Source of the DNA: Closterium sp. NIES-65
Lineage: Eukaryota > Streptophyta > Zygnematophyceae > Desmidiales > Closteriaceae
Reading direction: 5' to 3'
DNA: 64,000 bases
Assembly: GCA_948144175.1 (NCBI GenBank)
Contig: CANXME010002010.1
Coordinates: 682,001-746,000, forward strand
A program made the translations under genes and the position numbers. The notes under the pieces were generated by a model. That model saw only the letters and a program-made list of their open reading frames with translations, searched no databases and was not told the DNA's origin. Of the stretch, positions 11,280-58,904 are shown in pieces (the stretch's first letter is position 1; the number at the start of each line of letters is the position of its first letter).

Positions 11280-11760
11280 TAGGGCGCCTCGTTCTTCACG
11301 GCCCCCCTAAGGCCACGCGACCCGCCCCTTAGCGACCTGCGCGCCGCCCCCTAAGGCTCCGTCGGCCCACGCGCTCGCCCCTTACGGCCCCGCGCTCGCC
11401 CCTTAGCGACCCCGTCGGCCCCGCGATCGCCCCTAACGGCCCCGTCGGCCCCGCGCTCACTTCCCTAGAGGCCACCGTCGGCCCCGCACTCGCCCCTAGC
11501 GGCCCCGAACGGCCCCGCGCTCGCCCATACAGGCCCCGTACGGCCCCGTGCTCGCCCCTAGAGGCCCCAAACGGCCCCGCGCTCGCCCCTAGAGGCCCCG
11601 AACGGCCCCGCGCTCGCCCCTACAAGCCACGTACGGCCCCGAGCTCGCCCCTAGCGGCCCCGAACGGCCCCGCGCTCGACCCTACAGGCCCCGTACGGCC
11701 CCGCGCTCGCCTCTAGAGGCCCCGAACGGACCTGCGCTCGCCCTTAGAGGCCCCGAACGG
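11280..11760 (+). repeat. GC-rich tandem-repeat leader of element B
   Basis: About 480 bp built from ~31-35 bp units of the form ccccgaacggccccgcgctc followed by gcccctagaggc, with substitutions. It lies between the primer site and gag, with no long coding potential on the + strand. Equivalent leaders of different sequence but similar GGCC/CGCG texture occur in A, C and G. Confidence 0.8.
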
Positions 11761-11959
11761 CCCGTGACCGCCACAGCCCCTCCAGGACCGAGCCGAGCCG
11801 CGCGACCCGAACCGAGCCGCCCAGTCCGAGCCGAGCCGCGCGACCCGAACCGAACCGCGGCGCCCTACCCGAGCCGCGCCGCCCTAACTGAACTGAACTA
11901 AGCCGCGTGTACTGTTCGAGCCGCCCTACCTGTCTCACCCTCCTACTCCTACTGCTGCT

Positions 11960-15137: not shown

Positions 15138-17495
15138 TCTGGATACGGGCCACTTGACTCTATGGACTCATCCAAAGGCAGAGCTGAGAGCGAGTGGCGA
15201 GTAGGCAGAGGAGTGGCCTGAGGCGAGGAGTACGTGAAGCCGAAGCGCTGAAGGACCTGCTGCACCATGTGTGACTGAGTCAGGGTGATGGTGCGGCGTG
15301 CTCTGTCCCAGGTGATCCGCAAGCCAAGGTAGCTGCGCAGTTCACCCAGGTCTGTGCACGTGTGTCTCTTCTGCAGCTCGAACTTCACGTGGGCTAGTCC
15401 AGCAGTGTCAGCTGTGGCAAGGACCAAGTCGTCGACGTACACGAGGATGTAGAACGGCGGCAAAGAAGTGTCGGTGCGCACAAACAGCGACGGGTTGGCA
15501 GTAGAGGGAGCAAACCCAAGAGCCGCAAGTGTAGTCCTCAGTGTGTCGTGCCACTCACGCGGTGCCTGGCGGAGACCGTAGACTGGGCGCCGGAGGCTCC
15601 ACTGGGTGCCAGGAGGAAAAGACACCCAGTGAAGCCAGGTGGGCGACGCAGCCAGATCTCCTCGTGCAGGCTGCCCTGCAAGAAAGCAGTGCTAAAGTCA
15701 AGAGAGTGCAGCTCGTAGTCACGGTGAGCAGCTATGTGACGCAGTACCCGAAGAGTGGTCATCTTCGGGGTGGGAGAGAAGGTCTGAAAGTAGTCAACTC
15801 CCTGTTGCTGACTGAAGCCACGGGCCACGTAACATGCCTTGAAGACAGGCGGAGAACCCGGCGGCCGCTTCACCTTGAAAATCCACATGCCACTGATGAT
15901 GTTCGCCCCAGGCGGGGGAACCTCGTCAACGTAGGTGCCTGTGGACTTCCAGGAAGCCATCTCTGCGTCCATAGCTGCCTGCCACTTAGAGGAGTAGGTA
16001 CCCTCTATCGCCTCCGCGTAAGAGCGCGGAGTCGGGATGTCAAGTGCATCCGGGTCTCCCTCGGGGGTAAGCAGTACGGTCACGAGATGAGGTGAAGCAG
16101 CAGCCAAACACTGGAACTCTTCCTGCCTGTCCTCAAGGACGTCCGTGCCAAGAGCACACTCACCCCTGACGGACGGAGGACAAACAGACTCAGACTCAGC
16201 AATAAGACTAGCAGCGTAGTCTAGACGACAGCGAGCAGCAAAGTCGACGAGCTCAGCAACTAGGGCAGACGCAGCAGTGGACTCAAAGGAAGGGTCAGTG
16301 ACAAGAGTAGCAAGGAGACGCGTGACAATCGGACTGGCAGCACAAAGAGAGTCCGACTCCGGGTCGGCAAGAGCAGGAAGAGAGGACTCAGGAGGAGAAG
16401 GCAAAGGGGCACGCAGAGGAGAAGTGGACGGACGCAGAGATATCCGGTGCGTGCCAGGGACAGGAGGAGGACGCTGACGGGAACCACGACCACTAGCACG
16501 AGCAGCACGGACAGGCGATGCAGGGCGAGACGCAGGCTCAGGACGCTCAGCAAGACCTCCAGTAGGACCAGTGTAGGGAGAAGGAGCAGGCAGTGGGGAG
16601 GCCGGCACTAACTATAACTGCGACGGGACAGGCTGTGGACACTCTAAGGGAGGAGGAGGACCAGCAGAAGGCGGGAGACCAAGAACCTGCTCAAGGAGCG
16701 GAAGGAAGTACGGCCGAGGCCGCGCAACGACTCCAGACACAGCAGGGACAGCACGAGTACCCCCAGTGGCAGCACCAGCGCCAACAGCACCGCCAGCTCC
16801 AGCACCCCCAGCAGCTCCACTAGCTCCAGAACCTCCAGCAGCACCAATAGCACCCCCTGCAGGACCGCCTCCGGTACCGCCAGCAGTACCCTCAGCGCCA
16901 ACACCCGCAGCAGCTCCAGCTCCAGTCGGACCACGAGAAGATGCAGTGGCCCCAGCTCCAGTAGTACCCGCAGGCCCAGCAGCTCCAGTACTCCCAGTAC
17001 GAGCACCTCCGAGACCCGTGGTACCAACACCCTCAGCAGCCGAAGAACCTCCAGCTCCAGCAGCACGCCTCCAGCTCCGGGCAAACCACTCACGCACCTC
17101 CTGTGGAGAGAGTGGCTACCGTCGAGACGGAGCACCCGGAGAACCTCCAGGCCCAGCACCGCCAGACGCCACACAAGTAGGCCCAGCTCATGCAGGCTCC
17201 GCACCTCCAGGCTTAGCACCTCCAGGCGGAGCACCCCCAGGCTCAGCACCCCCAGTCGTAGCACCCCCAGGCTAAGCACCCCCAGACTCAGCGCCCCCAG
17301 GCGCAGCACCCCCAGGCGTAGTACCCCCAGGCTCAGCACCCCCAGGCTCAGCACCCCCAGGCGTAGCACCCACACGCTCAGCACCCCCAGGCTCACCACC
17401 CCCAGCAACACCAGAGTCACCAGCTACCTCAGCAGGCTCGACTGCGTCTACCTAGGACACACCTGAAGGGGCAGGACCCTGAGGGGGAAGGGGGT
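15138..17495 (-). pseudogene. Element A linker and reverse transcriptase
   Basis: On the minus strand an Ala/Gly-rich linker (about 16612-17420, with GGAEPGG-like units) leads into 16608-15538. That stretch reads ESDSLCAASPIVTRLLATLV, AMDAEMASWKSTGTYVDEVP, WIFKVKRPPGSPPVFKACYV and LHSLDFSTAFLQGSLHEEIW. Near 15625 there is a frameshift (PPGFTGCLFL versus MSFPPGTQW). RT continues to 15138 with LVYVDDLVLATADTAGLAHV (YVDD) and TDLGELRSYLGLRITWDRAR. It ends at SSGPYPDKLW, where the inverted junction with B lies. The catalytic residues are readable but the frame is broken. Confidence 0.86.
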
Positions 17496-18860
17496 CTACC
17501 GGGGGGGGGGGGGGGGGGCTGGCACGAGGAAGAGCGGTGGCGGGGGGAGGGACGGAGTGCGGTAGGGGAAGAGGCGGTAGTAGGGGACCGACTCGTCAAA
17601 CGTGACGTCCTGGGAGGACAAAACACGGCGAGAGGTGGGGTGGTAGAACTGCCACCCTGGCACGTTAGGGGGGAAGCCAAGGAAGACGCAGGGAGCAGCA
17701 CGAGGGGACAGCTTGTTCTCAGACAAGTCGCGGACAAACGCCCGAGATCCCCAGACACGGAACGCAGACGCATCGCCAACCTTCCCCGTCAAAAGCAAAG
17801 CTGAGGAGGCCTCCAGCATGGAGACCCTGGGCTGAAGGTTGATCTGATGCGCCGCGTACCGAACCGCAAACGGCCACAGAAAATGGGGGGCAGCCGCATG
17901 CATCATGGACGTACGGGCAACGTCCATGACCATGCCAATGCGGCGCTCAGCAATCCCATTTTGCTGTGGAGAGTCCGGAAGTGTGAAGGTCTGGCGGATG
18001 CCTCGTGCACGACAGTAGGCTCGCAGAATGTCAAAGTGCAGACGCAGAACAGGAATGTCCGAGCCGAAACACTTCCTGAGCTGGAGACGAGCTGCGCGGA
18101 TCCAGTCGATCAACACCTCAGTGACATCACCCTTGCTGCGCAAGGGGAAGACTGTGGTGTAACGCGAGTAGTCGTCAACCACCAGCAGGAAGTAGCGCTC
18201 GTGACCCTGTCCACGGACGCGGGCTGGGCCCCACACGTCCATGTGAAGCGTCTGCAGCGGGGCCTCTGTCGGAGGAAACTGGGAGGAGTGAGGGGCAGCA
18301 CGCTGCCGCCCCTTGACACAGTGGACGCAGGTAGGGGCAGGCCCCAGAGGAAGGGGAGGGAGGGACAGGGGAAGACCAGAGACAAGGACACGAGAGGCCA
18401 TGCCTCGGAGACGAGGCAGGGAGGGGTGACCAAGGCGGTGGTACCAGAGGAGAGTCTCGTGAGACAGGAGGCGACACGAGCAGGGGGCAGACTCAGGACC
18501 AGACCTGGACGATGCAGCAAACACCTGACCCAACGCAGCTGCCTGACCAGGCGCAGTGATTGGAGGAGACTCAGTGGTCAGTGTGTACAGGCTTGACCCC
18601 GGCCGACGTGTAAATGTGGCCAAGTGTCGGCCCGTCCGAGCGTCCGTGCAGTGGGTCACTCGCTGGCTCGCAGGAGTGAACTGGTGAACCCCCGCATCAT
18701 GTAGGTCGTCAGCACCACTCACCAAGTTTATAGAGCACGAGGGGAGGTAAAGACCAGACACGGTGGCAGAGGGGGCCGCCGGACACGGGAGGGCAGTGGA
18801 GAAGTGTGCAAGAACAGGACCCCCAGAGGGGTCTACCAGAGAGACTGCAACAGGCCGACT
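17496..18860 (-). pseudogene. Element A protease C-terminus, Gag-pre-integrase and integrase
   Basis: The minus-strand reading starts at the C insertion site. It covers LADPSGGPV-like protease sequence, LYLPSCSINLVSG, LLWYHRLGHPSLPRLRGM with CVHCVKGRQ (zinc motif), LHMDVWGPARVRGQGHERYF, then QNGIAERRIGMVMDVARTSM and VWGSRAFVRD. Around 18030 the text reads LRLHFDILRAYCRARG where sisters have LRLHSDRGGEFSSGLLRAYC. An in-frame deletion thus removed the second catalytic Asp and the GGEF motif, so the integrase is inactive. A G/C homopolymer at 17501-17518 disrupts the linker. Confidence 0.88.
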
Positions 18861-18996
18861 TGTCAGAATGAGAAACGAGAATGAATGACTAGAATGAGGG
18901 TTGGGTACAAATAGGTCAAACCTAACCCTAGAAATGTGTACCCACTATAGGCTAACCCACTGTAGCCTAAACAAGTACAACATACAATGTTTGACA
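18861..18996 (-). repeat. 3' LTR of element C
   Basis: 136 bp, tgtcagaatgagaaacgaga to tacaatgtttgaca on the + strand. On the element strand it is preceded by a polypurine-like region (cactcccataggcaaagtgg complement, 18997-19020). Confidence 0.95.
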
Positions 18997-19224
18997 CACT
19001 CCCATAGGCAAAGTGGGGGAGAACAAGGGGTCACAAGACCAGTCAAAGCAAGGCAAAGCTCAGGGTGGATCTCAAGGATACCACACAAGTTCCGAGCACA
19101 AGCAAGCAGTCACAAGACCAGTTCACATGCAGATTTAAAAAAGAAAGCAAGAGATACAGTGATCACAACCTAGCAAGAAAAAGCATGCAGGTATATATAT
19201 ATAGAGATCACTGTACAAGCAAAG

Positions 19225-22200
19225 TCAAGAAGTGAGCAAATGAGGGACAGTAGGCACGAGGCCTAGAACAGTACAGAAGCGCTGATGGTCACAAGGCTGA
19301 AGCGCCTTGGTGAACACGTCAGCAGTGTTGGCCCGAGTGGCCACGTAACGCAGACAAAGCTGACCTCGCTGCTGCAGCTCTCGAGCAAGAAAGTAGCGCA
19401 GAGCAATGTGCTTCGTCCTGTGCTCCAGTCTGTGCTCCCCACACAAGGCAATGGTGGCCTTGTTGTCGACGTACAGCACTGGAGGAGAACGAGGCTGCTT
19501 TCCAAGGTCAGTCAGCAGGTAGGTGAGCCAGCGAAGCTCCTGGGCAGCCATGGCCGTGGCGTATATCTCAGCCTCACAGCTGGAGCTGTGAACAGAAGAA
19601 GAGCGAGTAGAACGCCAAGAGACAGAGCCAGAGCCAAGGCTGAAGGTGTAACCCTGGGACGACCGCTGAGTAGCCTGGTCGTCTGCCCAAGAAGCGTCTG
19701 AGTGCCCAGTGAGAACAGGCCGGTCTCGCCCTCCAAGCACTAGCCCCATGCCCGACGTACTGCACAAGTAGCGCAACACCCTCTTAGCTGCATCCATGTG
19801 CTCCTTCCGGTGACGGCCGGGAGCGACATAGCGTGCTAAGATGCTGAGAGGGTATGCAAGGTCAGGTCGAGTGCAGGTCATCAGGTACATGAGGCAGCCC
19901 ACAAGCTCTGGATACGGACCACTCGGCTCTACGGACTCATCCGAAGGCAGAGCTGAGAGCGAGTGTCCCGTAGGCAGAGGAGTGGACTGAGGCGAGGAGT
20001 ACGTGAAGCCGAAGCGCTAAAGGACCTGCTGCACCATGTGTGACTGAGTCAGGGTAATGGTGCGGCGTGCTCTGTCCCGGGTGATCCGCAAGCCAAGATA
20101 GCTTGTCAGTTCACCCAGGTCTGTGCACGTGTGTCTCTTCTGCAGCTCGGACTTCACGTGAGCGAGACCAACTGTGTCAGAAGTGGCAAAGACCAAGTCG
20201 TCGACGTACACGAGGATGTAGAACTGCGGCAGTGAGGGGTCGGTGCGTAGAAACAGCGACGGGTCAGCAGTAGAAGGAGCGAACCCAAGAGCCGCAAGTG
20301 TAGTCCTCAGTGTGTCGTGCCACTCACGAGGCGCCTGGCGGAGACCGTAGAATGGCCGCCGGAGGCTCCACTGGGTACCAGGAGGGAACGACCCAGTGAA
20401 GCCAGGTGGGCGGCGCAGCCAGATCTCCTCGTGCAGGCTGCCTTGCAAGAAAGCTGTGCTGAAGTCAAGAGAGTGGAGCTCGTAGTCACGCTGAGCGGCG
20501 ACGTGTAGCAGAACCCGAAGAGTGGTCATCTTCGGGGTCGGGGAGAAGGTCTGGAAGAAGTCAACTCCCTCTCGCTGACTGAAGCCTCGTGCAACGTAAC
20601 GCGCCTTGAAGACAGGCGGAGAGCCCGGCGGCCGCTTCACCCTGAAAATCCACATGCCACTGACGATGTTCGCCCCAGGTGGGGGAACCTCGTCGACGTA
20701 GGTGCAAGTGGACTTCCAGGAAGCCATCTCTGTGTCCATGGCTGACTGCCACTGAGAGGAGTAGGGACCGGCCATCGCCTCTGCGCAAGAGCGTGGGGTC
20801 GGGATGTCTGGTGCATCCGGGTCTCCCTCAGGGGCAACAAGCATGGACACGAGATGGGGCAAAGCAGCGGCAAGGCAACCAAACTCCTCCTGCCTGTCCT
20901 CAAGAACGTCCGTGCCAAGAGCACACTCACCCCCGACGGACGGAGGACAGACAGACTCAGACTCAGCAACAAGACTCGCAGCGTAGTCTAGACGACACCC
21001 AGCTGCAAAGTCGACAAGCTCAGTGACTAAGGCAGACGCAGCAGCGGACTCAAAGGAAGGGTCAGTGACAACCGTAGCCAGGAGACGTGTGACAGTAGGA
21101 CTGGCAGCGCGAAGGGTGTCTGACTCCGGGTCAGCAAGAGCAGGAAGAGAGGACGCAGGAGGCGACGGGAGAGCGACACGCTGCGGAGTAGTGGACTGAC
21201 GAAGCGCCATCTGGTGAGTGCCTGGGACAGCAGGAGGACGCTGACTCTGGACACGACTACCAGTGGTAGCAGCACGAACAGGCGACCCTCGACGAGACGC
21301 AGGTGACACAGGACGTGACGCAGGCTCACGTCTCTCAGCAAGACCTCCAGTCGGACCAGTGTAAGGAGTAGGCACAGGGAGTGGGGAGGCAGGCGGTAAC
21401 TGTGGCTGTGACTGGACAGACGGCGGACACTCTAAGGCGAGAGGAGGACAAGGAGGAGGACGCTGACCAAGAACCTGCTGAAGGAGCGGAACGAAGTACG
21501 GCCGTGGCCGTGCAGCAACTCTCGAACCAGCAGAGACACCAGCGGCAGGGTCCTCAGCACCAGCAGAAGCTCCACCCTCCGGGTCCTCCACTCCAGCGGC
21601 AGCAGCAGCACCTCCAGAAGCACCAGCAGCACCTCCAGCAGTAGCAGCACCTCCAGCACCAGGGTCCGCAGCACCCGCAGCAGCTCCAACACCCGGGTCC
21701 TCAGTACGAGCAGCACCTCCAGCAGCACCGCCAGCAGCAGCAGCACCTCCAGCACCAGGGTCCGCAGCACCCGCAGCAGCGTCAACTCAGGGGACCCCAG
21801 CACCAGCAGCTCCACTCCGGAGACTGATGTGCCGAGCGTACCACTCTCGAAGCTGTGGGGAAGAGGGCGGCTCCCGCCGTGGTGGGGAAACACGAGTACC
21901 AACTCCAGTAGCACCACGAGCCCGAGACGAACCCCGCCGGAGGCTGCAGTACCGTGAGTACCACTCACGTAGCTGCTGCGAAGAGGGAAGTCCTCCAGGC
22001 GCCTCACAGTCAACTGCAACACCACCAGGCTCAGCACCCCCAGACTCAGCAACGCCAGGCTCAGTACCCTCAGACCCAGCACCCCCAGGCTCAGCACCCC
22101 CAGTCTCAGTACCCCTAGACCCAGCACCCCCAGGCTCAGCACCCCCAGTCTCAGCACCCCCAGTCTCAGCACCCCCAGACTCAGCACCCCCAGGCTCCGC

Positions 22201-24189
22201 CCGCTCAGGCTCCGCACGCTCAGGCTCAGAACCTCTAGCAGGACGCGAGTCGACAGCTACCTCGGCAGGCTCAACCGGGTCTATCTGAGAGACACCTGAG
22301 GGAGCGGCACCCTGAGGGGGGAGGGGGTCTACCACTGCAGCACCTGGCGCGAGGAAGAGAGGCGGGGGAGGGAGCGGGGCAGTGCGGTAGGGGAAGAGGC
22401 GGTAGAAGGGCACGGACTCGTCAAAAGTGACGTCCTGAGAGGGGAAGACGCGGTGCGAGGCGGGGTGGTAAAACTGCCAGCCAGACGCATCCGGGACAAA
22501 GCCAAGAAAGACACACGGAGCAGTGCGGGAGGAGAGCTTGTCCGCAGACGTGTCGCGAACAAAAGATCGGGATCCCCAGACACGGAAGCGTGACGCATCG
22601 CCAACCTCCCCCGTCCACAGCAGTGTGGGCGAGGTCTCCGGAGTGGAGACACGGGGCCAGAGGTTGAGCTGATGCGCAGCGTACCGGACCGCAAACGGCC
22701 ACAGAAAGTGGGGGGCAGCCGCGTGGACTAAGGAGGTACGAGCGACCTCCATGACCAAGCCAATGCGGCGCTCAGCAACCCCATTCTGCTGTGGAGAGGC
22801 CGGAAGCGTGAACGACTGGCGAATGACGTGCTCGGCACAGTAGGCTGCCAAGAGGTCGGAGGAGAACTCACCACCTCTGTCAGAGTGCAAGCGCAGGACC
22901 GGAAACTCCGAGCGAAAACGCTCTCGCAGCTGAAGACGTGCTCTGCTGATCCAAGGGATCAGAACATCAGGGACTTCACCCTTGGTGTGCAAGGGGAAGA
23001 CCGTGGTGTAGCGCGAGTAGTCGTCAACGACGATCAAGAAGTACCTCTCCTGGCCCTGACCACGGACGCGGGCTGGGCCCCACACGTCCATGTGGAGCGT
23101 CTGCAAAGGAGCAGTCGTCGGGGGGAACGAGGAGGAGTGAGGGGCAGCGCGCTGCCGCCCCTCGACACAGGGAAGACAAGGAGGAGCAAGGGAGGGTGGG
23201 AGGGGAGGGAGTACCCGAGGAAGACCAGAGACAAGGTACCGGGCGTGCATGCCCCGAAGGCGCTGCACTGACGGGTGACCAAGTCGGTGGTGCCAGAGGA
23301 CAGTCTTGTGCGCTAGAGAGCGACACGAGCAGGGGGCAGACAGCTGACCTGACGCAGACGCAGACGCCGCTACCTGAGGGGACTCAGTGGTGAGTGTGTA
23401 CAGGTCCGAGCCCGGCTGCCGAGTGAAGGTAGCCAGGTTACGGCCCGTCCGAGCACACGTGCAGTGTGTCACGCGCTCGTAGGCAGGGGTGAACTGGTGA
23501 ACACCCCCATCCTGAAGCGCACAACCCGCCACCAAGTTCGTAGAGAACGAGGGGAGGTGGAGACCTGACAGTGTGCCCGACGGGACAGCAGGACAAGGAA
23601 GGACAGTGGAGGAGGTCGCAATGACCGGACCCCCAGAGGGGTCAGCGAGCGAGACGGCGACTGGTCGAGCAAGGGGCTCAAGAGCAGTGCGGTCACGAAA
23701 GAAACAGCGCGAAGCGCCTGAGTCTAGAGTGAAGGTGTGCAGTGCCTCAGTGGACTCAGTAGTACCTGGGGTGGCGGACACACAAGCACCTAGAGCAGTA
23801 GCCTCACCAGCACCTGGGGCAGCAGACACGCAAGCACCTAGGGCGGCAGCCTCACTCGTGCGGATGCCTGGGTCAGGCGGAACACTCAGGTACTGGTCCT
23901 CCTCTCCACTAATAGTCAATGCATACATTGCTTTGAGAATAACATCAAAATCAAGAGCATAGATATCGATATCCTTCTTGAGGAGATCAGCCCACTGAGG
24001 GAGCTCAGGAGCGTCAGGAAACTGAGCACGCCAAGCATCATCTAGGCGAGAGAAGCAGCGCTGCGCAGTGTGCACCCTCCCGCACGTCTGTCCCTTGCGG
24101 CGACCAGTGCGGATGACGTACGTGCAGCTAAGGCTACCCCCCCCCACCCCCGTGCTGAAAGTACCACTCACGAAGCTCCTGGGAGGAGT
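19225..24189 (-). pseudogene. Element C pol: protease, integrase, RT, RNase H
   Basis: One minus-strand frame runs from the Cys/His block (SCTYVIRTGRRKGQTCG, THAQRCF-like) to the terminal stop at 19225. Domains in order: protease FTLDSGASRCFFRDRTALEP; Gag-pre-integrase LWHHRLGHPS ... CLPCVEGRQ; integrase LHMDVWGPAR, LHSDRGGEFSSDLL, QQNGVAERRIG; GGAEPGG linker; RT WIFRVKRPPGSPPVFKARYV, DFSTAFLQGSL, LVYVDDLVFATSDTVG; RNase H LTGHSDASWADDQATQRSSQ, LYVDNKATIALCGE. Two stops interrupt it: TGA at 21787 in the linker, and TAG at 20017 where relatives have CAG (VLQRFGF). All catalytic motifs are intact, making C one of the best-preserved copies. Confidence 0.9.
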
Positions 24190-25224
24190 GAGGGTGCTGC
24201 GCACTCTGGCCAGTGCCAGAGCCTCCACGACCACCACCGCCGCCTCCACCACGACCACCACCGCCCCTGCCGCCGCCACGTCCACTGCCGCCACCACCAC
24301 CGCCCCCACCCCGGCCACCGCCGCCGCCGCTGCCTCCACCACCCCCACCGCTGCCACTAGCCCCTCCAGCCCCGCCACCGCCTCCACCGCTGCCACCACC
24401 CCCACCACCGCCTCCCCCGCCGTCACCCCCACCGCCATTGCCTCCCCTGCCCTTGCCGCTGCGGCGCCCGCTGGGAGCGGACGCAGAGCCGACCTGCTCA
24501 GCACCAAGAAGGTCGACAGCAGCAGCAGAGGCGACAGAGGGGAGCAGGGGGGAGGGGGAACACCCCTCGAAGAAAGGGGTGCGGGGGTCGCCACGAGAGG
24601 CACCTACAGCTACAATACTCTTCTCAGCTGCAAGTAGTTCCTTCTCTAGGGCGGCAATGGTGAGCTCAGTGGGGCAGCGAGCTAGGAAGTGGTCCCTGAC
24701 TGTACGCAGAGTGTCAGGGAGGCGGGTGACTAGGTGGTAGAGAGTGAGCTAGAGCGGGGGAGGGTTGGAGGCAAGAAACTCAGCGGGCATGGCTGCACGG
24801 AAGCGGGCATCACTAGTACGGAGGTGAGTGATGAGGTCAGCGACTGTCTGGAAGGCGGACAGGTCCGGGAACAGGTAGGGAAGGGAGAGACGGCCTAGTG
24901 CAGCTGGGCCGGGGAGGAGTAGCGCGCAACTACAGCAGTGTACAGGGCCTGCGCAGTCTGATGCTGGCCAAAGTGCTCGCGCTCATCGACTGGCAGGGAG
25001 TTGCGAATAGCAAAGCGGGCGTGGGCATCGCGAGTCTGCCACTGCGAGCGAGCAGTAGCGGCAGCAGTAGTAGCAGGAGCAGGGACTGTGCCTAGTGCGT
25101 GATCGTACAGCGAGATATCCTCTCTGGCAGTGAGCTGGAGGAACAGGTGCAGATCATCGAGCCAGGTCTCAAACTTAATCGGGCGGCCCTCAGTATCGAA
25201 CGAGAGAACTGTAGGGCTAGCCAT
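24190..25224 (-). pseudogene. Element C gag
   Basis: The ATG on the minus strand at 25224 gives MASPTVLSFDTEGRPIKFET then WLDDLHLFLQLTAREDISLY. Near 24905 one base is missing (YSSPAQLH then stop; element B reads YSSPASAALGRL). A second defect at about 24753 turns the Trp of PPPLWLTLYHL into TAG. The rest encodes GASRGDPRTPFFEG-like sequence and a Gly-rich low-complexity region. It shifts frame again before VSGTFSTG and the Cys/His block. The gag type matches B and differs from A and G. Confidence 0.82.
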
Positions 25225-25986
25225 AGCTGAAACAGTAGCAGTGGCAGCAGTAGTAGTAGCAGGAGTAGCAGTAGCAGCAGTGGTAGAAGCAGTAGGGCGG
25301 CGCGACTCGGCTTGGGTGGCGCGGCTCGGCTAGGGCGGCGCGGCTCGGCTAGGGCGGCGCGGCTTGGTCGGGTCGCGCGGCTCGGTCGGGTCGCGCGGTT
25401 CGGCTCGGTCCTAGAGGGACGAGCGCGGGGCCGGGTGGGGCTGCTAAGGGAGAGCGCGGGGCCGTCCAGGGCGAGGGCGAGGCCGGTCGGGGGCCGTTCG
25501 GGGCTAGCGCGGGGCCGTTCGAGGGCCGTGAGAGGCTAGCGCGGGGCCGATGGGGGCCTTAGGGGGCTAGCGCGGGGCCGAGGGGGGCCGTGAGAGGCTA
25601 GCGCGGGGGCCGCACGGGGCCATTCGGGGCTAGCGCGGGGCCGTTCGGGGGCCGTGAGAGGCTAGCGCGGGCCGACGGGGGCCTTAGGGTGCTAGCGCGG
25701 GGCCTGAGGGGGCCGTGAGAGGCTAGCGTGGGGCCGATCGGGGGCCGTGAGAGGCTAGCGCGGGGCCACACGGGGCCTTGAGAGGCTAGCGCGGGGCCGT
25801 AAGGGGCCTTAAGAGGGCGACGCGAGGGGCCGTGAAGGGCCTTAAGGGGCGACGCGAGAGGGCCTTAGGGGGCCTTAAGAACGAGGCGCTCGAGGCACAG
25901 GAAAAGGCGGCGCACGAGGGCGCGGCTAGCGGAAACGGTGGGCCCTAACGTTTCGGTCCTAGGTGAAACCTAGGCTCGTAATACCA
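25225..25986 (-). other. Leader and primer site of element C
   Basis: About 760 bp between LTR and gag. 25973-25986 on the element strand is TGGTATTACGAGCC, a degenerate initiator-Met primer site. 25500-25880 is a GC-rich array of ~30-40 bp words based on gctagcgcggggccg and ggggccgtgagag. No coding region is supported. Confidence 0.75.
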
Positions 25987-26122
25987 TGTCAGAATGAGAA
26001 ACGAGAATGAATGACTAGAATGAGGGTTGGGTACAAATAGGTCAAACCTAACCCTAGAAATGTGTACCCACTATACGCTAACCCACTGTAGCCTAAACAA
26101 GTACAACATACAATGTTTGACA
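25987..26122 (-). repeat. 5' LTR of element C
   Basis: 136 bp copy of 18861-18996, with only isolated differences seen by eye (for example ctatacgcta versus ctataggcta). Followed by TSD cgact. Confidence 0.95.
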
Positions 26123-27718: not shown

Positions 27719-28661
27719 GACAGGAGTAGACTAGCAGCACGAGCAGTAGGCTAAGGGCAGTGCACTGGTAGAGGTGCTGCTCTTACCGTGCAGGCGAGAA
27801 GGACCGAGGCTCGCCGGTAGGAACAAGGCGGCGACGGCAGTGACCGGGTGTAGCGGACAGGGCGGCTCGGACGGCTCGGCGGCTCGGCAGCAACAGCAGC
27901 TCGGTGGCTCGGCGACTCGGCGGCTCGGGCGGCTCGGCGGGAGCGACAGCTCGGTAGCTCGGGCGGCTCGGCGGCTCGGGCGGCTCGGCTGCTGCAGGGA
28001 CAGTGGCAGCTGCTGCTGCAGGGACGACGGCGGCGGCTGCTGCTGCAGAGACTTCGGCGGGCGCTGCTGAAAGGACAACGGCAGCGGCCGCTGCTCAAGG
28101 GAAGGCGGCGGCCACTGCTGTAGTGGGCGACGGCGGGCCGTAAGGGGCCGCGTGAGGGGCCGTAAGGGGGGCCGCTAAGGGCGGCGCGAGGGGCCGCAAG
28201 GGCGGCGGCGGGGCTGAGGAGCGGCGCGAGGGGCCGCAAGGGGGCTGCGCAGGGCCGACGAGAGGCATGAGGGGCCGCAAGGGCGGCGCACGGGGCCGAC
28301 GAGAGGCGCGCGAGGGGCCGCAAGGGTGGCGCCCGGGGCCGACGAGAGGCGCTCGGGGCCGCAAGGGCGGCGCACGGGGCCGACGAGAGGCACGCGGGGC
28401 CGCAAGGGCGGCGCGCGGGGCCGACGGGTGGCGCGAGGGGCCGCAAGGGCGGCGCGCGGGGTCGACGGGCGGCACGAGGGGCCGTATGGGTGGCGCGCGG
28501 GGCCGTAAGGGCGGCTCAAGGGGCCGCTAAGGGCGGCGTGACGGTAGGGAGGGCACTCGGGGCGCGACTCGGGCAGGGGCGAAGCGCGCTCCGGGCAGGA
28601 AAAAAAAATATCGAGGTGGGCCCTAGAGAGCGTTCCCACTAGGGAACCTGCTCTGAAACCA
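27719..28661 (-). repeat. GC-rich leader of element A
   Basis: About 940 bp between primer site and gag. The distal part (28140-28560) is a tandem array of ~33-40 bp units such as ggggccgcaagggcggcgcg, some joined by gccgacgagaggc. The proximal part (27860-28000) is ggctcgg repeats. On the element strand the LTR is followed by TGGTTTCAGAGCAGG, a primer site one or two bases from the family consensus. Open frames here are repeat artefacts. Confidence 0.8.
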
Positions 28662-29623: not shown

Positions 29624-29638
29624 TCCCTCAGCGAAACT

Positions 29639-29777
29639 GTCAGAGGTCCACTGGTGATCCCCGATTGATCCTATGGAAGGGTTACAGGCACGTTTGCCTG
29701 GGGGGTTCTGGGCGCACTGACCCGCTACTTTAACAAGCCCTTTTATCCCAGTGGTCTAGTGGCTGGGATTCTGAGAT
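29639..29777 (+). repeat. Left LTR of the TRIM-like element
   Basis: 139 bp, tgtcagaggtccactggtga to tgggattctgaga. It differs from the right copy by only a few substitutions (for example cctatggaag/cctagggaag, gttctgggc/gttatgggc). Confidence 0.9.
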
Positions 29778-29821
29778 GGTATCCAGAGCGAAGGTCTCGG
29801 GTTCGAATCCCGGTATGTGCA
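29746..29821 (+). other. tRNA-Glu-like module spanning the TRIM LTR/core boundary
   Basis: tcccagtggtctagtggctg ggattctg resembles the 5' half of eukaryotic tRNA-Glu, with A box tggtctagtgg. ggttcgaatcc is an exact B box, inside a pairable T arm tcggg-ttcgaat-cccgg. The presumed acceptor arms (tcccagt and tatgtgc) do not pair, so this is not a functional tRNA gene. It is more likely a Pol III promoter-like or SINE-like module. Confidence 0.75.
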
Positions 29822-29846
29822 CTTCGGGCATCCCAGTGAGGGGGGG

Positions 29847-29985
29847 TGTCAGAGGTCCACTGGTGATCCCCGATTGATCCTAGGGAAGGGTTACAGGCAC
29901 GGTTGCCTGGGGGGTTATGGGCGCACTCACCCGCTACTTAAACAAGCCCTTTTATCCCAGTGGTCTAGTGGCTGGGATTCTGAGA
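29847..29985 (+). repeat. Right LTR of the TRIM-like element
   Basis: 139 bp copy of 29639-29777, ending tctgaga, followed by the second TSD gaaac (29986-29990). Confidence 0.9.
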
Positions 29986-29990
29986 GAAAC

Positions 29991-31287: not shown

Positions 31288-31419
31288 TGAGAATGTTAGA
31301 ACGAGAATGAAATGACTATGAACGGAGTGAGAACAAATAGGAAACCCTAATTGGGTTGTACCCCCTATGGGATACCCCACTATAGCGTACACAAATAAGT
31401 AAGCTATAATGTTCTGACA
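31288..31419 (-). repeat. 3' LTR of element G
   Basis: 132 bp, tgagaatgttagaacgagaa to ataatgttctgaca, partner of 38623-38754. Confidence 0.94.
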
Positions 31420-31631
31420 CACCCCCATAGGCAAAGTGGGGGAGAACAAGGGGTCACAAGACCAGTCAAGCAAAGCAAAGCAAAGCTCAGGGTGGATCAC
31501 AAAGTCACCACACATTCCGAGCACAAGTTCAAAGGCCAGAAGGCCAGTTCACATACAAGATCACATATAGAGATATACAAGAGTCAAGCAAGCAAGAGCA
31601 AGAGTATATATAGGTGAAGGTACAAGCAAGG

Positions 31632-34600
31632 TCAAGAAGTGAGCAAGTGAGGCAAGACAGGCACAAGACCCAGCTTCGTGCAGCAGCGCTGATGATCACA
31701 AGGCGCAAGTGCCTTGATGAAGACATCAACAGTGTTGGCCTCAGAGGCCACGTACGCAAGTTGCAACTGTCCACGCTGCTGTACCTCACGAGCAAGAAAG
31801 TAGCGGAGAGCAATGTGCTTTGTCCTGTGCTCCAAACGCTGCTCTCGACACAAGGCCAGCATGGCCTTGTTGTCTACGTACAAAACTGGAGGAGAACGAG
31901 GCGACTCTCCAAGGTCGGTCAGCAGGTAGGTGAGCCAGCGAAGCTCCTGGGCAGCCATAGCCCCGGCGTAGATCTCAGCCTCACAACTGGAGCCGAGAAC
32001 AGAAGACGAGCAGGTAGCCCGCCACGAAACAGAGCCGGAACCAAGGCTGAAGGTGTAACCCTGTGACGACCGCTGCGTAGCCTGGTCGTCAGCCCAAGAA
32101 GCGTCCACGTGCCCAGTGAGGACCACTGGACTGCGCCCTCCAAGCACTAGCCCCATGCCCGATGTACTGCACAAGTAGCGCAACACCCTCTTCGCTGCAG
32201 CCATGTGCTCTGGTCGGTGTCTCCCAGGAGCAACATAGCGTGCGAGAATGCTAAGAGGGTATGCAAGGTCAGGTCGTGTGCAGGTCATCAGGTACATGAG
32301 GCAGCCAACAAGCTCTGCATACGGGCCACTCGACTCTACGGACTCATCCAAAGGCAGAGCTAAGAGCGAGTTGCGAGTAGACAGAGGAGTGGCCTGAGGC
32401 GAGGAGTACGTGAAGCCGAAGCGCTGAAGGACCTGCTGCACCATGTGTGACTGAGTCAGGGTAATGGTGCGGCGTGCTCTGTCCCGGGTGATCTGCAAGC
32501 CAAGGTAGCTGCGCAGTTCACCCAGGTCAGTGCACGTGTGTCTCTTCTGCAGCTCGGACTTCACGTAGGCCAGTCCAGCAGTGTCAGCTGTGGCAAAGAC
32601 CAAGTCGTCGATGTACACGAGGATGTAGAACGGCGGCAGAGAGGTGTCGGTGCGCAGAAACAGCGACGGGTCTGCAGTGGAAGGAGCAAACCCAAGTGCC
32701 GCCAGCGTAGTCCTCAGTGTGTCGTGCCACTCACGCGGCGCCTGGCGGAGACCGTAGACTGGACGCCGGAGACTCCACTGGGTACCAGGAGGGAAAGACC
32801 CAGTGAAGCCAGGTGGGCGACGCAGCCAGATCTCCTCGTGCAGGCTGCCCTGCAAGAAGGCGGTGCTGAAGTCGAGAGAGTGCAGCTCGTAGTCACGGTG
32901 AGCAGCAACGTGCAGCAGAACCCGAAGAGTGGTCATCTTCGGGGTGGGGGAGAAGGTCTGAAAGTAGTCAACTCCCTGCCGCTGTCTAAAGCCACGAGCC
33001 ACGTAACGCGCCTTGAAGACAGGCGGAGAACCCGGGGGCCGCTTCACCCTGAAAATCCACATGCCACTGACGATGTTCGCCCCAGGAGGGGGGACAGCGT
33101 CAACGTAGGTGCCTGTGGACTTCCAGGAAGCCATCTCTGCATCCATAGCTGCCTGCCACTGAGAGGAGTAGGGACCCTCTATCGCCTCCTCGTAAGAGCG
33201 CGGAGTCGGGATGTCTAGTGCATCCGGGTCTCCCTCAGGGGTGAGCAGTACAGACGCGAGATGAGGTGAAGCTGCGGCCAGACACTGGAACTCCTCCTAC
33301 CTATCCTCAAGGACGTCCGTGCCAAGGGCACACTCACCCCCGATGGACGGAGGACAAGTAGACTCAGACTCAGCGACAAGACTAGCAGCGTAGTCTAGGC
33401 GACAGCGCGCAGCAAAGTCGACGAGCTCAGTAACAAGGGCAGACGCAGCAGAAGACTCGAAAGAAGGGTCTGTGACGGCAGTAGCAAAGAGACGCGTGAC
33501 AGTAGGACTCGCAGCACGAAGAGAGTCCGACTCCGGGTCGGCAAGAGCAGGAAGAGAGGAAGCGGGAGGAGAAGGCAAAGGGGCACGTAGAGGAGCAGTA
33601 GACAGACGCAGAGACATCCGGTGCGTGCCAGGGACAGGAGGAGGACGCTGACGCGAACCACGACCACTAGTGCGCGCAGCACAAACAGGCGACGCAGGAC
33701 GAGACGCAGGCTCACGACGCTCAGTAAGACCTCCAGTCGGACCAGCGTAGGGAGAAGGAGCAGGCAAAGGGGAGGCAGGCTGTAGCTGTGACTGTGACTG
33801 GACAGGCTGTGGACCCTCTAAGGGAGGAGGAGGAGGACCAGGAGAAGGTGTAAGACCAAGAACCTGTTGCAGGAGCGAAACGAAGTATGGTCGGGGCCGC
33901 GTGGCGACGCCAGAAACAGCAGGGACAGCACCAGTACCCCCAGCAGCAGTACCCGCTCCAGCAGCACCTCTAGTAGCTCCAGAACCCCCAGCAGCACCTC
34001 CAGTAGCCCCAGAATCTCCAGCAGTACCAGGAGAACTGCCAGTCGGACCGCCAGCGGTAGTCTCAGCGCCAACACGCTCAGCAGCACCAGCTCCAGGAGA
34101 ACCCGCAAACCCAGCTGCTCCAGAACTACCAGTACGAGCACCTCCGGGACGCGCGGCAGAAGCACCCTCAGCAGCCGAAGAACCTCCAGCACCAGCAGCA
34201 CGCCTCCAGCGCCGGGCAAACCACTCACGCAGCTCCTGTGGGGAGAGTGGCTCTCGGCGAGACGAAGCACTCGGAGAACCTCTAAGCGAAGAACCTCCAG
34301 GCTCAGGACCCTAAGGCAAAGCACCTCCAGGCGTAGCACCTCCAGTCTCAGTACCCCCAGGCTCAGCACCCCCAGGCTCAGCACCCCCAGGCTCAGCACC
34401 CCCAGGCTCAGCACCCCCAGGCTTAGCACCCCCAGGCTCAGCACCCCCAGACTCCGCACCCCCAAGCTCCGCACCCCTAGGCTCAGCACCCCCAGGCACA
34501 GCACCCCCAGTCACAGCACCCCTAGGATCAGCACCCACAGCAGAACCAGAGTCACCAGTGACCTCGACAGGCTCGAACGCGTCTACCTGGGACACACCTG

Positions 34601-37180
34601 AAGGGGCAGGACCCTGAGGGGGAAGGGGGTCTACCGGGGGGGGACCTGGTACCAAGAAGAGCGGGGGTGGGGGGAGGGACGGAGTGCGGTAGGAGAAGAG
34701 GCAGTAGTAGGGTACCGACTCGTCGAACGTGACGTCCTGGGAGGACAGAACACGGCGAGAGGTGGGGTGGTAGAACTGCCACCCAGGGACGTCGGGGGGG
34801 AACCCCAGGAAGACGCAGGGAGCAGCGCGAGGGGACAGCTTGTCCGCAGACAAGTCGCGGACAAACGCCCGAGATCCCCATACCCGGAACGCCGACGCAT
34901 CGCCAACCTTCCCCGTCCACAGCACGGCTGGGGAGGTCTCCGGCCTGGAGACCCTGGGGTGGAGGTTGATCTGATGCGCCGCGTACCTGACCGCAAACGG
35001 CCACAGAAAATGGGGGGCAGCCGCATGCATCATAGACGTACGAGCGACGTCCATGACCATGCCAATGCGGCGCTCTGCAATCCCATTTTGCTGCGGTGAG
35101 TCCGGAAGCGTGAAGGTCTGGCGGATGCCTCGCGCACGACAGTAGGCACGCAGAAGGCCAGAGGAGAACTCTCCGCCCCTGTCCGAGTGCAGACGCAACA
35201 CAGGAAAGTCCGAGGCGAAGCTCTGCCTGAGCTGGAGACGAGCTGCGCGGATCCAGTCGATCAGCACCTCAGTGACATCACCCTTGCTGCGCAAGGGGAA
35301 GACTGTGGTGTAACGCGAGTAGTCGTCAACCACCAACAGGAAGTAGCGCTCTTGACCGAGTCCACGGACGCGGGCAGGGCCCCACACGTCCATGTGAAGC
35401 GTCTGCAACGGAGCCTCTGTCGAAGGAAACTGGGAGGAGTGAGGGGCAGCACGCTGGCGCCCCTAGACACAGGGGACACAGGCAGGGCCAGGGCCCTGAG
35501 GAAGGGGAGGGAGGGACTGGGGAAGACCAGACACAAGAAGACAGGAGGCCATGCCTCTGAGCCGAAGCAGAGAGGGGTGACCCAGGCGGTGGTGCCAGAG
35601 GAGAGTCTCGTGAGACAGGCGACGACACGAACAGGGGGCAGACTCAGGACCAGACCTGGACGCTGCAGCAAACACCTGACCTGACCAAGGGACCCTACCA
35701 GACTCAAGAACTGGAGGAGAAGTAGTGGTCAGTGTGTACAGGCTCGACCCTGGCTGACGTGTAAACGTAGCCAGGTGACGACCTGTGCTAGCCTCTGTGC
35801 AGTGCGTCACTCGCTGACGAGCAGGGGTGAACTGGTGGACTCCCGCATCCTGTAGGTCAGCACCACTCACCAAGTTCGTAGAGAACGAGGGGAGGTAGAG
35901 ACCAGACAGGGTGCCAGAGGGAGCCGCCGGACACGGGAGGACTGTGGAGAAGCGAGACAGAACAGGACCCCCAGAGGGGTCAGCCAGGGACACCGCAACC
36001 GGCCGACCAAGCGGCGTGAGTGTGGTGCGGTCCCGAAAGAAGGAGCGAGACGCTCCAGAGTCAAGGGTGAAAGTGTGGGAGGCCGAAGCCGACGCAGTAC
36101 CTTAGAGCGCAGACTCACTAGTACCTGAGAGAGCAGTCTCACCAGTACCTGAGAGTACAGACGCACTGGCACCTAGAGCAGAAGCCTCGCTGGCACCTAG
36201 AGCAGCAGTACCAATGCCCGGGTCGGGCGGGAAACACCGGTAACAGTCACCCTCATCACTAATGGTCACAGCATACATGGCAGCAAGGATAGCATCAAAG
36301 TCAAGATCAAAGATAGCTACACCAGCCCTAGACAGCTCTCCCCAGCGGGGGATCTCCGCGGCCTCCGGGAACTGCTGGCGCCAAGCGTCCGTCAGGCGGC
36401 CAAAGCAGCGCTGGGCGGTGTGGGTACCCCCACACTGCTCTCCAGCGCGGTCGCCTGTGCGAAGAACGTAGGTGCAGGGACCAAAACCCCCACCACGCTG
36501 ACGCTGCGTGTACCACTCACGGAGCTGCTGAGGGGTGGGGACGTCGCGAGAACGCTGCTGCTGCTGCTGCTGCTGGCGCTGACCACCCCCAGAGCTGCTC
36601 CGCTGCGAAGCGCCACTCCGACCACCTCCACCACCGCCACCCCCGCCTCCGCCTCCACCGCCCCCGCCTCCGCCTCCACCGCCGCCGCCTCCGCCACCTC
36701 CGCTCCCACCGCCACCGCCGCCGCCACCCCCACCTCCAGTGCCGCCACTAGCACCCCCACCCCCGCCACCACCTCCACCGCCACCCCCACTCCCTCCGCC
36801 GCCTCCACCTCCACCTCCACCGCCCCCGCTGGCCCCACCCGCTCCCTTGCCCCCCTTGCCCTTGCCAGAGCGGCGTCTCCCGCTAGGGGCAGACGCCGCA
36901 CCGACTGACTCAAGACCAACGAGGTCGGCCGCAGCGGCAGAGGCGACAGAGGGCAGGAGAGGGGACCGAGAACACCCCTCAAAGATGGGGGCGCGGGGGT
37001 CACCTCGAGAGGCTCCTATAGCGACTATGCTCTTCTCCGCCGCTAGGAGGGCCTTCTCGAGGCTGTCGACTGTGAGGTTGGTGGGACAGACCGCGAGGAA
37101 GTGGTCTCGAACTACACCAAGGGAGTCAGGGAGGCGAGTGACTAAAACGTAGAGAGTGATGTACATGGGGGGGGGGGGGG
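31632..37180 (-). pseudogene. Element G gag C-terminal half and pol
   Basis: One minus-strand frame from the C-run at 37167-37180 to the stop at 31632. It contains PMYITLYVLVTRLPDSLGVV, a Gly-rich tract of ~90 residues, the Cys/His block CTYVLRTGDRAGEQCGGTHT and the protease region. Gag-pre-integrase follows (LLWHHRLGHPSLLRLRGM). Integrase has LHMDVWGPARVRGLGQERYF, LHSDRGGEFSSGLL and QQNGIAERRIG. After the GGAEPGG linker, RT has WIFRVKRP, DFSTAFLQGSL and LVYIDDLVFATADTAG (YIDD), and RNase H has LTGHVDASWADDQATQRSSQ and LYVDNKAMLALCRE. Stops: TAA 36102, TAG 35463, TAG 34311, TAG 33297. The last two protein-domain blocks are otherwise unbroken. Confidence 0.9.
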
Positions 37181-37641
37181 TTCTTGGCGCAGAAGTCAGC
37201 AGGAAGCGCAGCGCGGTAGCGAGTGTCACTAGTGCGGAGGTGCGTAATGAGATCAGCGACACTGGGAAAGGCGGCAAGGTCAGGGAAGAGGAAGGGGAGC
37301 ATGAGGCGGCTCAGTGCAGCAGTGGCAGGGGAGGAGTAGCGCGCAACTACAGCGTCGTACAAGGTCTGGGCACTCTTGTACTGGCTAAAGTGCGCGCGCT
37401 CAGCGGTAGGCAGGTGGTGACGCACAGCAAGACGTGCAGCAGCATCGCGCATGGCCCACTGTGAGCGAACAGTGGCGTCAGCATCAGCAGCAGGGGCAGG
37501 GACGGCGCGAGAGGTGAGGTCAAAGAGAGAAAGACCGTCTGCCCTATCGCACTGTAAGAACAGCTGCAGGTCGTCGACCCAGACCTCAAAGTCAATGGCA
37601 CGACCCTCAGTGTCAAAAGCTAGGACACTAGGGGTAGCCAT
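37126..37641 (-). pseudogene. Element G gag, N-terminal half
   Basis: The ATG at 37641 (minus) reads MATPSVLAFDTEGRAIDFEV, WVDDLQLFLQCDRADGLSLF and YKSAQTLYDAVVARYSSPAT to ADFCAKNPPPP. The frame is then lost in a 14-base C-run (37167-37180 G on the + strand), and gag continues in the overlapping frame. The same frame is open upstream of the ATG through the leader for about 190 further codons of Pro/Arg/Ala-rich repeats. I treat these as leader, not protein. Confidence 0.85.
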
Positions 37642-38622
37642 GACTGCAGCCGGCGATCTCACCAGACAGGACGGGTTGGGGAGCACAGCAGCACAGTAAA
37701 CACGGCAGCTCGGCCGGCCCAGCAGCAACAGCAGCACCTCGGCACCAGCGGCTCGGCTCCTCGGGCGGCTCAGGCGGCTCGGGCGGCTGGGGCGGCTCAG
37801 GCGGCTCGGGCGGCTCGGGCGGCTCGGGCGGCTCGGGCGGCTTGGGCGGCTCGGGCTGTCAGCGGCACAGGCGGCTCCTGCGGCTTGGCTCCACAGCTGC
37901 GCAGGTGGCTCGGGCTGGTGTCTCACGGCAGGGACGGGTGGTGCACGGGTGGCCGGGAGCTGGGCCGGGACGGGTAGCGCGCGGGCGGTTGGGAGCGGGG
38001 CCGGGACGGGTGGCACACGGGCGGCTGGGAGCGGGGCCGGGACGAGTGACGCACGGGCGGCTGGGAGCGGGGCCGGGACGGGCTGCGCACGGGCGACGAG
38101 GGGCCGGGAAGGGTGTGCGCGGCCGGGACGGGTGGCGCACGGGTGGCGTGGGGCCGGATCGGGCGGCGCACGGCGTCGAGGGGCCTGGCGGGCAGCGCGC
38201 GGGCGTCTAGGGGGGGCCAAGACGGGCGGCTCGCGGGCACTAAGGGCAGCGCGCGGGCAGCATGGGGCCTAGACGGGCGGCTCGCGGGCTAGAAGGGCAG
38301 CGCGCGGGCGGCGTGGGGCCTGGACGGGCGGCGCGCGGGCTCGAAGGGCAGCGCGCGGGCGGCGTGGGGCGTGGACGGGCGGCGTGCGGGTGTCTAGGGG
38401 CCGGGACGGGCGGCGCGCGAGCGTCTTAGGGCGGAGCGCGGGCGTCAAGGGGCCAGAACAGGCGGCGCGTGGGCGTCTAAGGGCGGCACGCGGGCGTCTA
38501 GGGGCCGTTAGGGCAGATCGAAAAAGTAAGAGAAAGGGCCCGGAGCGCGCTCCGGGCAGAAAAAAAAGTTCGATGTGGTGGGCCCTAAGCACAGTTCCCA
38601 CGGGGGAACCTGCTCGATACCA
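37642..38622 (-). repeat. Leader of element G
   Basis: About 980 bp of GC-rich repeats: ggctcgggcggctcgggcgg near 37760-37860, then ~40 bp units with gggccgggacgggtggcgca (37940-38160) and cggcgcgcgggc words (38220-38500). The primer site is at 38610-38622 (TGGTATCGAGCAGG on the element strand). Confidence 0.78.
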
Positions 38623-38754
38623 TGAGAAAGTTAGAACGAGAATGAAATGACTATGAACGGAGTGAGTACAAATAGGAAACCCTAATTGGGTTGTACCCCC
38701 TATGGGATACCCCACTATAGCCTACACAAATAAGTAAGCTATAATGTTCTGACA
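38623..38754 (-). repeat. 5' LTR of element G
   Basis: 132 bp copy of 31288-31419, followed by TSD tggga at 38755-38759. Confidence 0.94.

Positions 38755-57874: not shown

Positions 57875-58904
<1,030 letters not shown>

What the first reader, a model, noticed from the sequence alone, without database searches (positions are those of the whole stretch)
29639..29985. 347 bp TRIM-like retroelement whose LTR/core boundary forms a tRNA-Glu-like Pol III module
Seen: two 139 bp direct repeats, a 69 bp core starting with an initiator-Met-type primer site (TGGTATCCAGAGC), a G-rich tract before the second repeat and a 5 bp TSD gaaac. Excision restores the gag frame of element E. The end of the LTR (tggtctagtgg) is a Pol III A box, and the core has an exact B box (ggttcgaatcc) in a pairable T arm. 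The 5' half looks like tRNA-Glu. Known: TRIMs are tiny non-coding LTR elements, and Cassandra TRIMs carry a 5S rRNA promoter in the LTR. Inference: this is a tRNA-based counterpart, possibly transcribed by Pol III, or a SINE that acquired an LTR-like layout. I know of no described family with this arrangement.
Basis: partly seen in the sequence, partly recalled or inferred. Interest (0 to 1): 0.82.

Follow-up and report, generated by a model that had tools for sequence, protein, structure and literature searches.

The report
Tiny retroelement with split tRNA-like promoter
A 348-letter mobile element in the genome of a green alga (Closterium) belongs to a family with thousands of copies, and it appears to carry a tRNA-type start signal split across the boundary between its end repeat and its core, a layout not seen in the description of its closest known relatives.

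Summary
The host is Closterium. In the window's own 874-Mb assembly the LTR-end/primer-site junction occurs 3,023 times and an LTR-end motif 7,696 times. Exact 5-bp duplications flank 28 of 30 closest copies, 43 of 75 junctions and 8 of 20 single LTRs. It is therefore a genuine multi-copy TRIM and not a SINE. The A box sits in the last 25 bp of the LTR and the B box lies in the core, behind the primer-binding site; this split is present in two subfamilies. A TTTT run lies 7 bp upstream of the A box in each LTR and nowhere else in the window element. The best reading is Pol III transcription from the 5' LTR/core junction, ending at the TTTT of the 3' LTR. That is inferred, not shown. What differs here is the promoter split by the LTR boundary, which leaves solo LTRs without a B box. 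New variant of a known kind.

The parts
29633..29637 (+). 5' target site duplication GAAAC
   Evidence: sequence; the window copy (L009) is one of 28 of 30 loci with an exact 5-bp TSD
29638..29776 (+). 5' LTR, 139 bp, begins TGTCAG, ends CTGAGA (CTGACA is the commoner end among the fetched TSD-bearing copies)
   Evidence: last six letters of 43 TSD-bearing copies: 36 CTGACA, 6 CTGAGA, 1 CTTAGA; all 30 loci closest to the window copy, itself included, end TGAGA
29735..29744 (+). putative Pol III start region and TTTT (29741-29744); would act as the R region (inference)
   Evidence: T4 runs in the element only at 29741 and 29950; T4 before the A box in 22 of 22 A and 19 of 21 B copies
29752..29762 (+). 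A box TGGTCTAGTGG, within the last 25 bp of the LTR
   Evidence: exact in 82 of the 100 listed LTRs of a search that left these letters open (counted by eye; 7,696 matches in all)
29777..29789 (+). primer-binding site, TGGTATCCAGAGC (one C more than TGGTATCAGAGC)
   Evidence: TGGTATCAGAGC in 40 of 43 fetched copies, whose first seven PBS letters were part of the search pattern; extra C in 14 of 28 close copies with a readable junction
29800..29810 (+). B box GGTTCGAATCC inside a T-arm-like stem, in the core
   Evidence: exact GGTTCGANNCC in 36 of 43 copies and 25 of 28 close copies with a readable junction; 2,461 LTR-end+PBS+B-box matches in the genome
29840..29846 (+). polypurine tract (G-run) before the 3' LTR
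   Evidence: G-run of 5 or more in 39 of 43 copies
29847..29985 (+). 3' LTR, 139 bp; holds an A box (29961-29971) and TTTT (29950-29953) but no B box
29986..29990 (+). 3' target site duplication GAAAC

Best explanation
A non-coding LTR retroelement (TRIM) of Closterium, probably moved by copia-type proteins. Shown: LTR-core-LTR structure, TG...CA-type ends in most fetched copies, primer site, polypurine tract, 5-bp TSDs, solo LTRs, tandem arrays, thousands of copies. Inferred: RNA polymerase III recognises a type-2 promoter formed only at the 5' LTR/core junction (A box in the LTR end, B box in the core behind the primer site), starts about 10-17 bp upstream of the A box, reads through the core and stops at the TTTT of the 3' LTR. 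The transcript would then have a very short terminal repeat (about 3-10 nt) for strand transfer. Because the B box is not in the LTR, the 3' LTR and solo LTRs would be promoterless.
For: TRIM nature: 28 of 30 loci with exact 5-bp TSD against 8 of 870 mismatched flank pairs; 43 of 75 junctions with LTR-core-LTR and exact TSD against 2 of 1320 in a control; 8 of 20 single LTRs are solo with TSD. In 216 annotated proteins, 27 LTR starts and 98 LTR ends in the common frame abut other sequence exactly at the element edge, a few of them inside rearranged copies. Promoter: tRNA model 19.4 bits; tRNA-Glu alignment 25 against a maximum of 17 in random sequences; 3 of 200,000 Markov sequences show A then B box; both boxes in two subfamilies, with A-B divergence 0.030 in the 22 nt up to the A box and 0.072 in the T arm/B box against 0.161 in the rest of the LTR before them and 0.183 in the rest of the core, 44 of 20,000 column draws as low. 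Terminator: TTTT before the A box in 41 of 43 copies, and an inner TTTT in 1 of 43. LTR pairs identical in 7 of 22 and 4 of 21 elements, so recent activity. Copia elements in the window share the TGTCA start, 5-bp TSDs (read off the flanks by eye), LTRs of about 132-136 bp and a primer site directly at the LTR end.
Against: No transcript or Pol III data. Other copies score lower with the tRNA model (14.1 bits in L052 and 15.9 in L072, both on the element's own strand at the boxes), and none of 20 loci pooled gave a tRNA match up to E 10. Inside each subfamily the B box is not unusually intact: 85 of 161 other windows in A and 48 of 161 in B are at least as intact, and the TTTT block is likewise ordinary (56 and 48 of 161); 84 of 182 free windows have the same commonest letters in both subfamilies. 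16 of 77 LTR windows are as similar between subfamilies as the B-box arm. The stretch between the boxes was fixed by my search pattern and is needed for reverse transcription anyway. 18 of 100 LTRs depart from the A-box letters. RNA folding shows no excess stability (z -0.31 and 0.13). The TTTT of the 5' LTR lies at the start and must be passed, and an R of 3-10 nt would be shorter than Cassandra's 18 bp (PMC10886601). No autonomous partner was proven.
Confidence: 0.62

Rival explanations
1. Ordinary Pol II TRIM of Closterium. The tRNA-like stretch is a fossil (for instance a captured SINE or tRNA piece around the primer site) and plays no part in transcription today.
For: Structure and TSDs need no Pol III; the B box and TTTT are no better kept than other windows within a subfamily; tRNA model scores are weak.
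Against: Both boxes and the TTTT are kept between two subfamilies that differ elsewhere; 36 of 43 copies keep an exact B box.
Confidence: 0.3
2. The A/B boxes are chance letters in an unusual LTR end and primer region, with no tRNA ancestry.
For: Below the Rfam gathering score; no tRNA by ARAGORN at default settings; no cloverleaf in the fold.
Confidence: 0.06
3. A SINE, starting near 29746, that looks like an LTR element because of a tandem duplication.
For: A tRNA-like head followed by a short unit.
Against: Copies begin and end at the LTR edges with exact 5-bp TSDs, and solo LTRs exist.
Confidence: 0.02

Closest known systems
Helenus (TRIMs with tRNA-derived LTR sequence), incl. Helenus-1_SMo of Selaginella moellendorffii (Kojima 2024, PMC10886601)
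   Same: Short non-coding LTR element, tRNA-type A and B boxes, PBS, PPT, 5-bp TSD in fungi and plants; Helenus-1_SMo has a 120-bp LTR and an 85-bp internal part, near the sizes here (LTR mostly 138-142 bp, core 70 bp in the window copy); tandem arrays are reported for the zebrafish family LTR-11_DR.
   Different: Helenus is defined by tRNA-derived sequence inside the LTR, and the paper's alignment figure shows boxes A and B in LTRs of four groups (Fig. 2 legend: fungi, wasps, fish, molluscs). Here only the A-box half is in the LTR and the B box is in the core behind the PBS.
Cassandra TRIMs (5S rRNA promoter in the LTR; passages of PMC7215508, and PMC10886601)
   Same: TRIM with a Pol III-type promoter; PBS TGGTATCAGAGC; tandem LTR/internal arrays.
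   Different: The promoter is 5S-derived (box A/C) and lies in each LTR; reported from vascular plants. Here it is tRNA-type and split.
SMART / TA-TRIMs (passages of PMC4717578)
   Same: Very short elements (down to 292 bp), 5-bp TSD, tandemly arrayed forms.
   Different: That paper does not hold the words 'tRNA' or 'polymerase III' (0 occurrences each).
Copia elements in this window (18861-26122 and 31288-38754, minus strand)
   Same: LTR about 136 and 132 bp, TGTCA start, PBS at the LTR end, G-rich stretch before the 3' LTR, 5-bp TSD.
   Different: Autonomous-size elements; a blastn of the TRIM against the window shows no long match to them; their PBS letters differ from the TRIM's.

Membership tests
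TRIM | two short LTRs, under 1000 bp, no coding capacity | tested here: met
   348 bp; LTR 139; 43 TSD-bearing copies 342-380 bp; stops in all six frames of the window copy
TRIM | PBS after the 5' LTR and PPT before the 3' LTR | tested here: met
   PBS TGGTATCAGAGC in 40 of 43 copies (seven of its letters were in the search pattern), G-run in 39 of 43; window copy has an extra C
TRIM | 4-6 bp TSD | tested here: met
   5 bp in 28 of 30 loci and at 43 of 75 junctions
TRIM | solo LTRs | tested here: met
   8 of 20 single LTRs with exact TSD
TRIM | mobilised by an autonomous LTR element | tested here: inconclusive
   window copia elements share end structure only
Helenus | tRNA-derived sequence (A and B box) inside the LTR | tested here: not met
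   A box in the LTR, B box in the core; B box in the 5' LTR of 0 of 28 close copies with a readable junction
Helenus | conserved A and B boxes somewhere in the element | tested here: met
Helenus | 5-bp TSD (fungi, plants) | tested here: met
Helenus / TRIMp3 | Pol III transcription (per PMC10886601 validated only for Cassandra) | not testable with these tools
   no transcript data
Cassandra | 5S rRNA-derived sequence in the LTR | tested here: not met
   Rfam scan of the element region lists no 5S match up to E 10; no family match in the window at gathering
tRNA-SINE | 5' end at the tRNA head, variable TSDs, no LTRs | tested here: not met

The most novel reading that the evidence does not exclude
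A TRIM whose Pol III promoter exists only at the 5' LTR/core junction: half in the LTR and half behind the primer site. Each full insertion would then carry a single working promoter, while the 3' LTR and all solo LTRs are silent by construction, and reverse transcription rebuilds the promoter at every cycle. I met no such arrangement in the paper searches (open-access library; mostly listings and passages seen).
Probability: 0.55. Interest if true: 0.62.

Novelty: new variant of a known kind. Interest (0 to 1): 0.52.

Why it matters
If the promoter works, it is a further solution, beside 5S (Cassandra) and tRNA-bearing LTRs (Helenus), for driving a tiny LTR element by Pol III, and one in which LTR-LTR recombination would destroy the promoter. 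It sits in an algal lineage close to land plants, in thousands of copies with recent insertions (11 of 43 examined have identical LTR pairs), so transcription, strand transfer with a very short R, and copia dependence are all directly testable there.

Tried and rejected
SINE reading: rejected by exact LTR edges, TSDs and solo LTRs. Functional tRNA gene: rejected; relaxed ARAGORN settings also 'find' unrelated tRNAs in the element and are uninformative. Special RNA fold: no signal. Amino-acid conservation over the family: boxes not above the rest, uninformative. Within-subfamily intactness: against a special status of the B box and TTTT, reported above. 5-bp TSDs judged from protein flanks: 7 pairs, 1 dropped for a 2-residue flank, 3 of the other 6 compatible (background 39 of 552); I regard the remaining 3 as internal or rearranged. 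Viral and prokaryote collections: no match to one pattern each. Not obtained because the genome machine did not answer: Closterium tRNA genes, the number of LTR-end/PBS junctions without regard to the B box, the count of LTRs with the exact A box, and junctions chosen by the polypurine tract or LTR start. Selection: the 43 copies are those of 75 junctions that had exact TSDs (9 of the 75 had no second LTR end, 23 had one but no TSD); the control imitates the scan of starts, not of several ends; at least one site is there twice (L075, L084), and one copy was trimmed by 3 nt (L006).

Full report
What is there. The window is Closterium DNA: the 120 listed hits (of 8000 scored) of a copia protein from the window are all named Closterium. 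The element runs 29638-29985: LTR 139, core 70, LTR 139, LTRs 134 of 139 identical, flanked by GAAAC. It lies in the gag region of a copia-like element; joining the flanks brings the frame together, though a TGA stands just upstream in the same frame.

It is a family. A six-frame query found 159 proteins (120 listed), and a second query 111 (15 of them already listed), 216 distinct listed proteins, every one named Closterium NIES-53 or NIES-54. These look like gene models that ran through insertions (inference). 182 of 216 hold an LTR start or end in the common frame; 27 starts and 98 ends sit directly against sequence that is not the next element part, a few of them inside rearranged copies. 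There are 26 distinct 5' flanks, and 80 distinct 3' flanks among the 92 long enough to compare. Successive LTR starts are most often 69 codons apart, that is 207 bp (19 of 30 spacings). In the window's own assembly (874,075,685 bases, 2400 contigs) the motif A box + LTR end + PBS occurs 3,023 times and its reversed control 0 times. An LTR motif that leaves the A box open occurs 7,696 times, control 0, and LTR end + PBS + B box 2,461 times, control 0. The contigs here reach several Mb, whereas the published NIES-53/54 drafts have N50 of 51 and 40 kb (PMC10407611, passages), so the family is probably not limited to those two strains (inference).

Mode of movement. 28 of 30 loci found by whole-element similarity have an exact 5-bp TSD; 8 of 870 mismatched flank pairs agree by chance (the window copy is one of the 30, and a few loci repeat one site). 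Of 75 junctions in 68 loci taken from the list (60 regions fetched, plus L001-L008), 66 have a second LTR end downstream and 43 have an exact TSD at the outer ends; control 2 of 1320. The rest include tandem arrays: 15 of 68 loci have two or three successive LTR-PBS junctions (L007 and L008 overlap), and L067 and L098 mix units of about 207 and 234 bp. Of 20 LTRs chosen because no partner stood nearby in the list, 8 are solo LTRs with exact TSD; others lie next to a PBS or a G-run. LTR pairs are identical in 7 of 22 (subfamily A) and 4 of 21 (B), median distance 0.022 and 0.014. No rate was applied to turn this into years.

Two subfamilies. A: 342-348 bp, LTR 138-139. B: 373-380 bp, LTR mostly 141-142, with a longer core. 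36 of 43 end CTGACA; all 30 of the loci closest to the window copy, itself included, end TGAGA.

The split promoter. In the window copy the A box ends 14 bp before the LTR end, and the B box begins 10 bp behind the PBS-like letters, in the core. In 43 TSD-bearing copies the B box GGTTCGANNCC is exact in 36 and the PBS canonical in 40. TTTT precedes the A box in 41, and an inner TTTT occurs in 1 (the A box and part of the PBS were in the search pattern there). Of the 30 close loci, chosen by overall similarity, 2 had no readable junction and were set aside; of the other 28 the A box is exact in 28 (5' LTR) and 28 (3' LTR), the B box is in the core in 25, a B box in the 5' LTR in 0, TTTT in both LTRs in 28, inner TTTT in 0. 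In the 100 listed LTRs the A box is exact in 82 (counted by eye). Between subfamilies, the 22 nt up to the A box and the 19 nt of the T arm/B box differ by 0.030 and 0.072, against 0.161 (LTR before them) and 0.183 (rest of core); 44 of 20,000 column draws are as low. Against this, LTR windows as similar as the B-box arm occur in 16 of 77 cases, and within a subfamily neither the B box nor the TTTT block is unusually intact.

tRNA likeness. Rfam tRNA: 19.4 bits in the window copy, 15.9 in L072, 14.1 in L052, where the element lies on the minus strand, and no tRNA match up to E 10 in 20 pooled loci. So the D-arm and T-arm parts resemble a tRNA, while the acceptor and anticodon parts do not; the LTR end and PBS occupy the place of the anticodon arm.

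How it may work. Shown: structure, copy number, TSDs, recent movement. Inferred: Pol III starts 10-17 bp before the A box, passes the PBS, core and the first part of the 3' LTR, and ends at its TTTT, giving an R of roughly 3-10 nt; copia proteins then reverse transcribe and integrate. Two copia elements in the window (18861-26122, LTR about 136 bp, TSD CGACT; 31288-38754, LTR about 132 bp, TSD TCCCA on the minus strand; both TSDs read by eye off the flanks) share the TGTCA start and a PBS directly at the LTR end. They show the right chemistry but are not proven partners.

Known relatives. Helenus (PMC10886601; outline, parts 1-4 of 6 of the text, legends and tables, a term search) covers tRNA-bearing TRIMs in fungi, animals and one lycophyte, so the general idea is in print. 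Closterium does not occur in that paper. In the paper searches made I met none with the promoter split by the LTR boundary, and none on TRIMs of Closterium; the library is open-access only, and apart from Helenus I saw listings, and passages of three papers. I therefore do not file this as Helenus: the defining place of the tRNA-like sequence was tested and only half met. It is a new variant of the TRIMp3 kind.

Noticed in passing
29777-29789 and L009-L038: An extra C in the primer-binding site is shared by 14 of 28 close copies with readable junctions. Since the PBS is partly rewritten from the tRNA primer at each cycle (recalled), an even split is what half-inheritance from the RNA template would give; a second primer tRNA or two separate lineages are the other options.
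   Followed up: partly
18861-26122 and 31288-38754 (minus strand): Two copia elements with paired LTRs of about 136 and 132 bp, 98-99% LTR identity and 5-bp TSDs read by eye.
   Followed up: partly
17127-17546, 21960-22379, 34247-34681, 62411-62801: 15-bp repeat arrays (repeats of the GGAEP kind in the protein) in the pol region of four copia copies, differing between the copies.
   Followed up: no
11389-11822, 25457-25828, 28168-28543, 38099-38415: Arrays of short tandem units (about 31, 32, 41 and 20/31 bp) that seem to lie in or near leader regions of copia elements.
   Followed up: no
57811-58773: About 0.9 kb of (CA)n/(TG)n microsatellite, seen as Cys-Val and His-Thr open frames.
   Followed up: no
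L067, L098: Tandem arrays that mix units of the two TRIM subfamilies (spacings near 207 and 234), pointing to recombination between them.
   Followed up: partly
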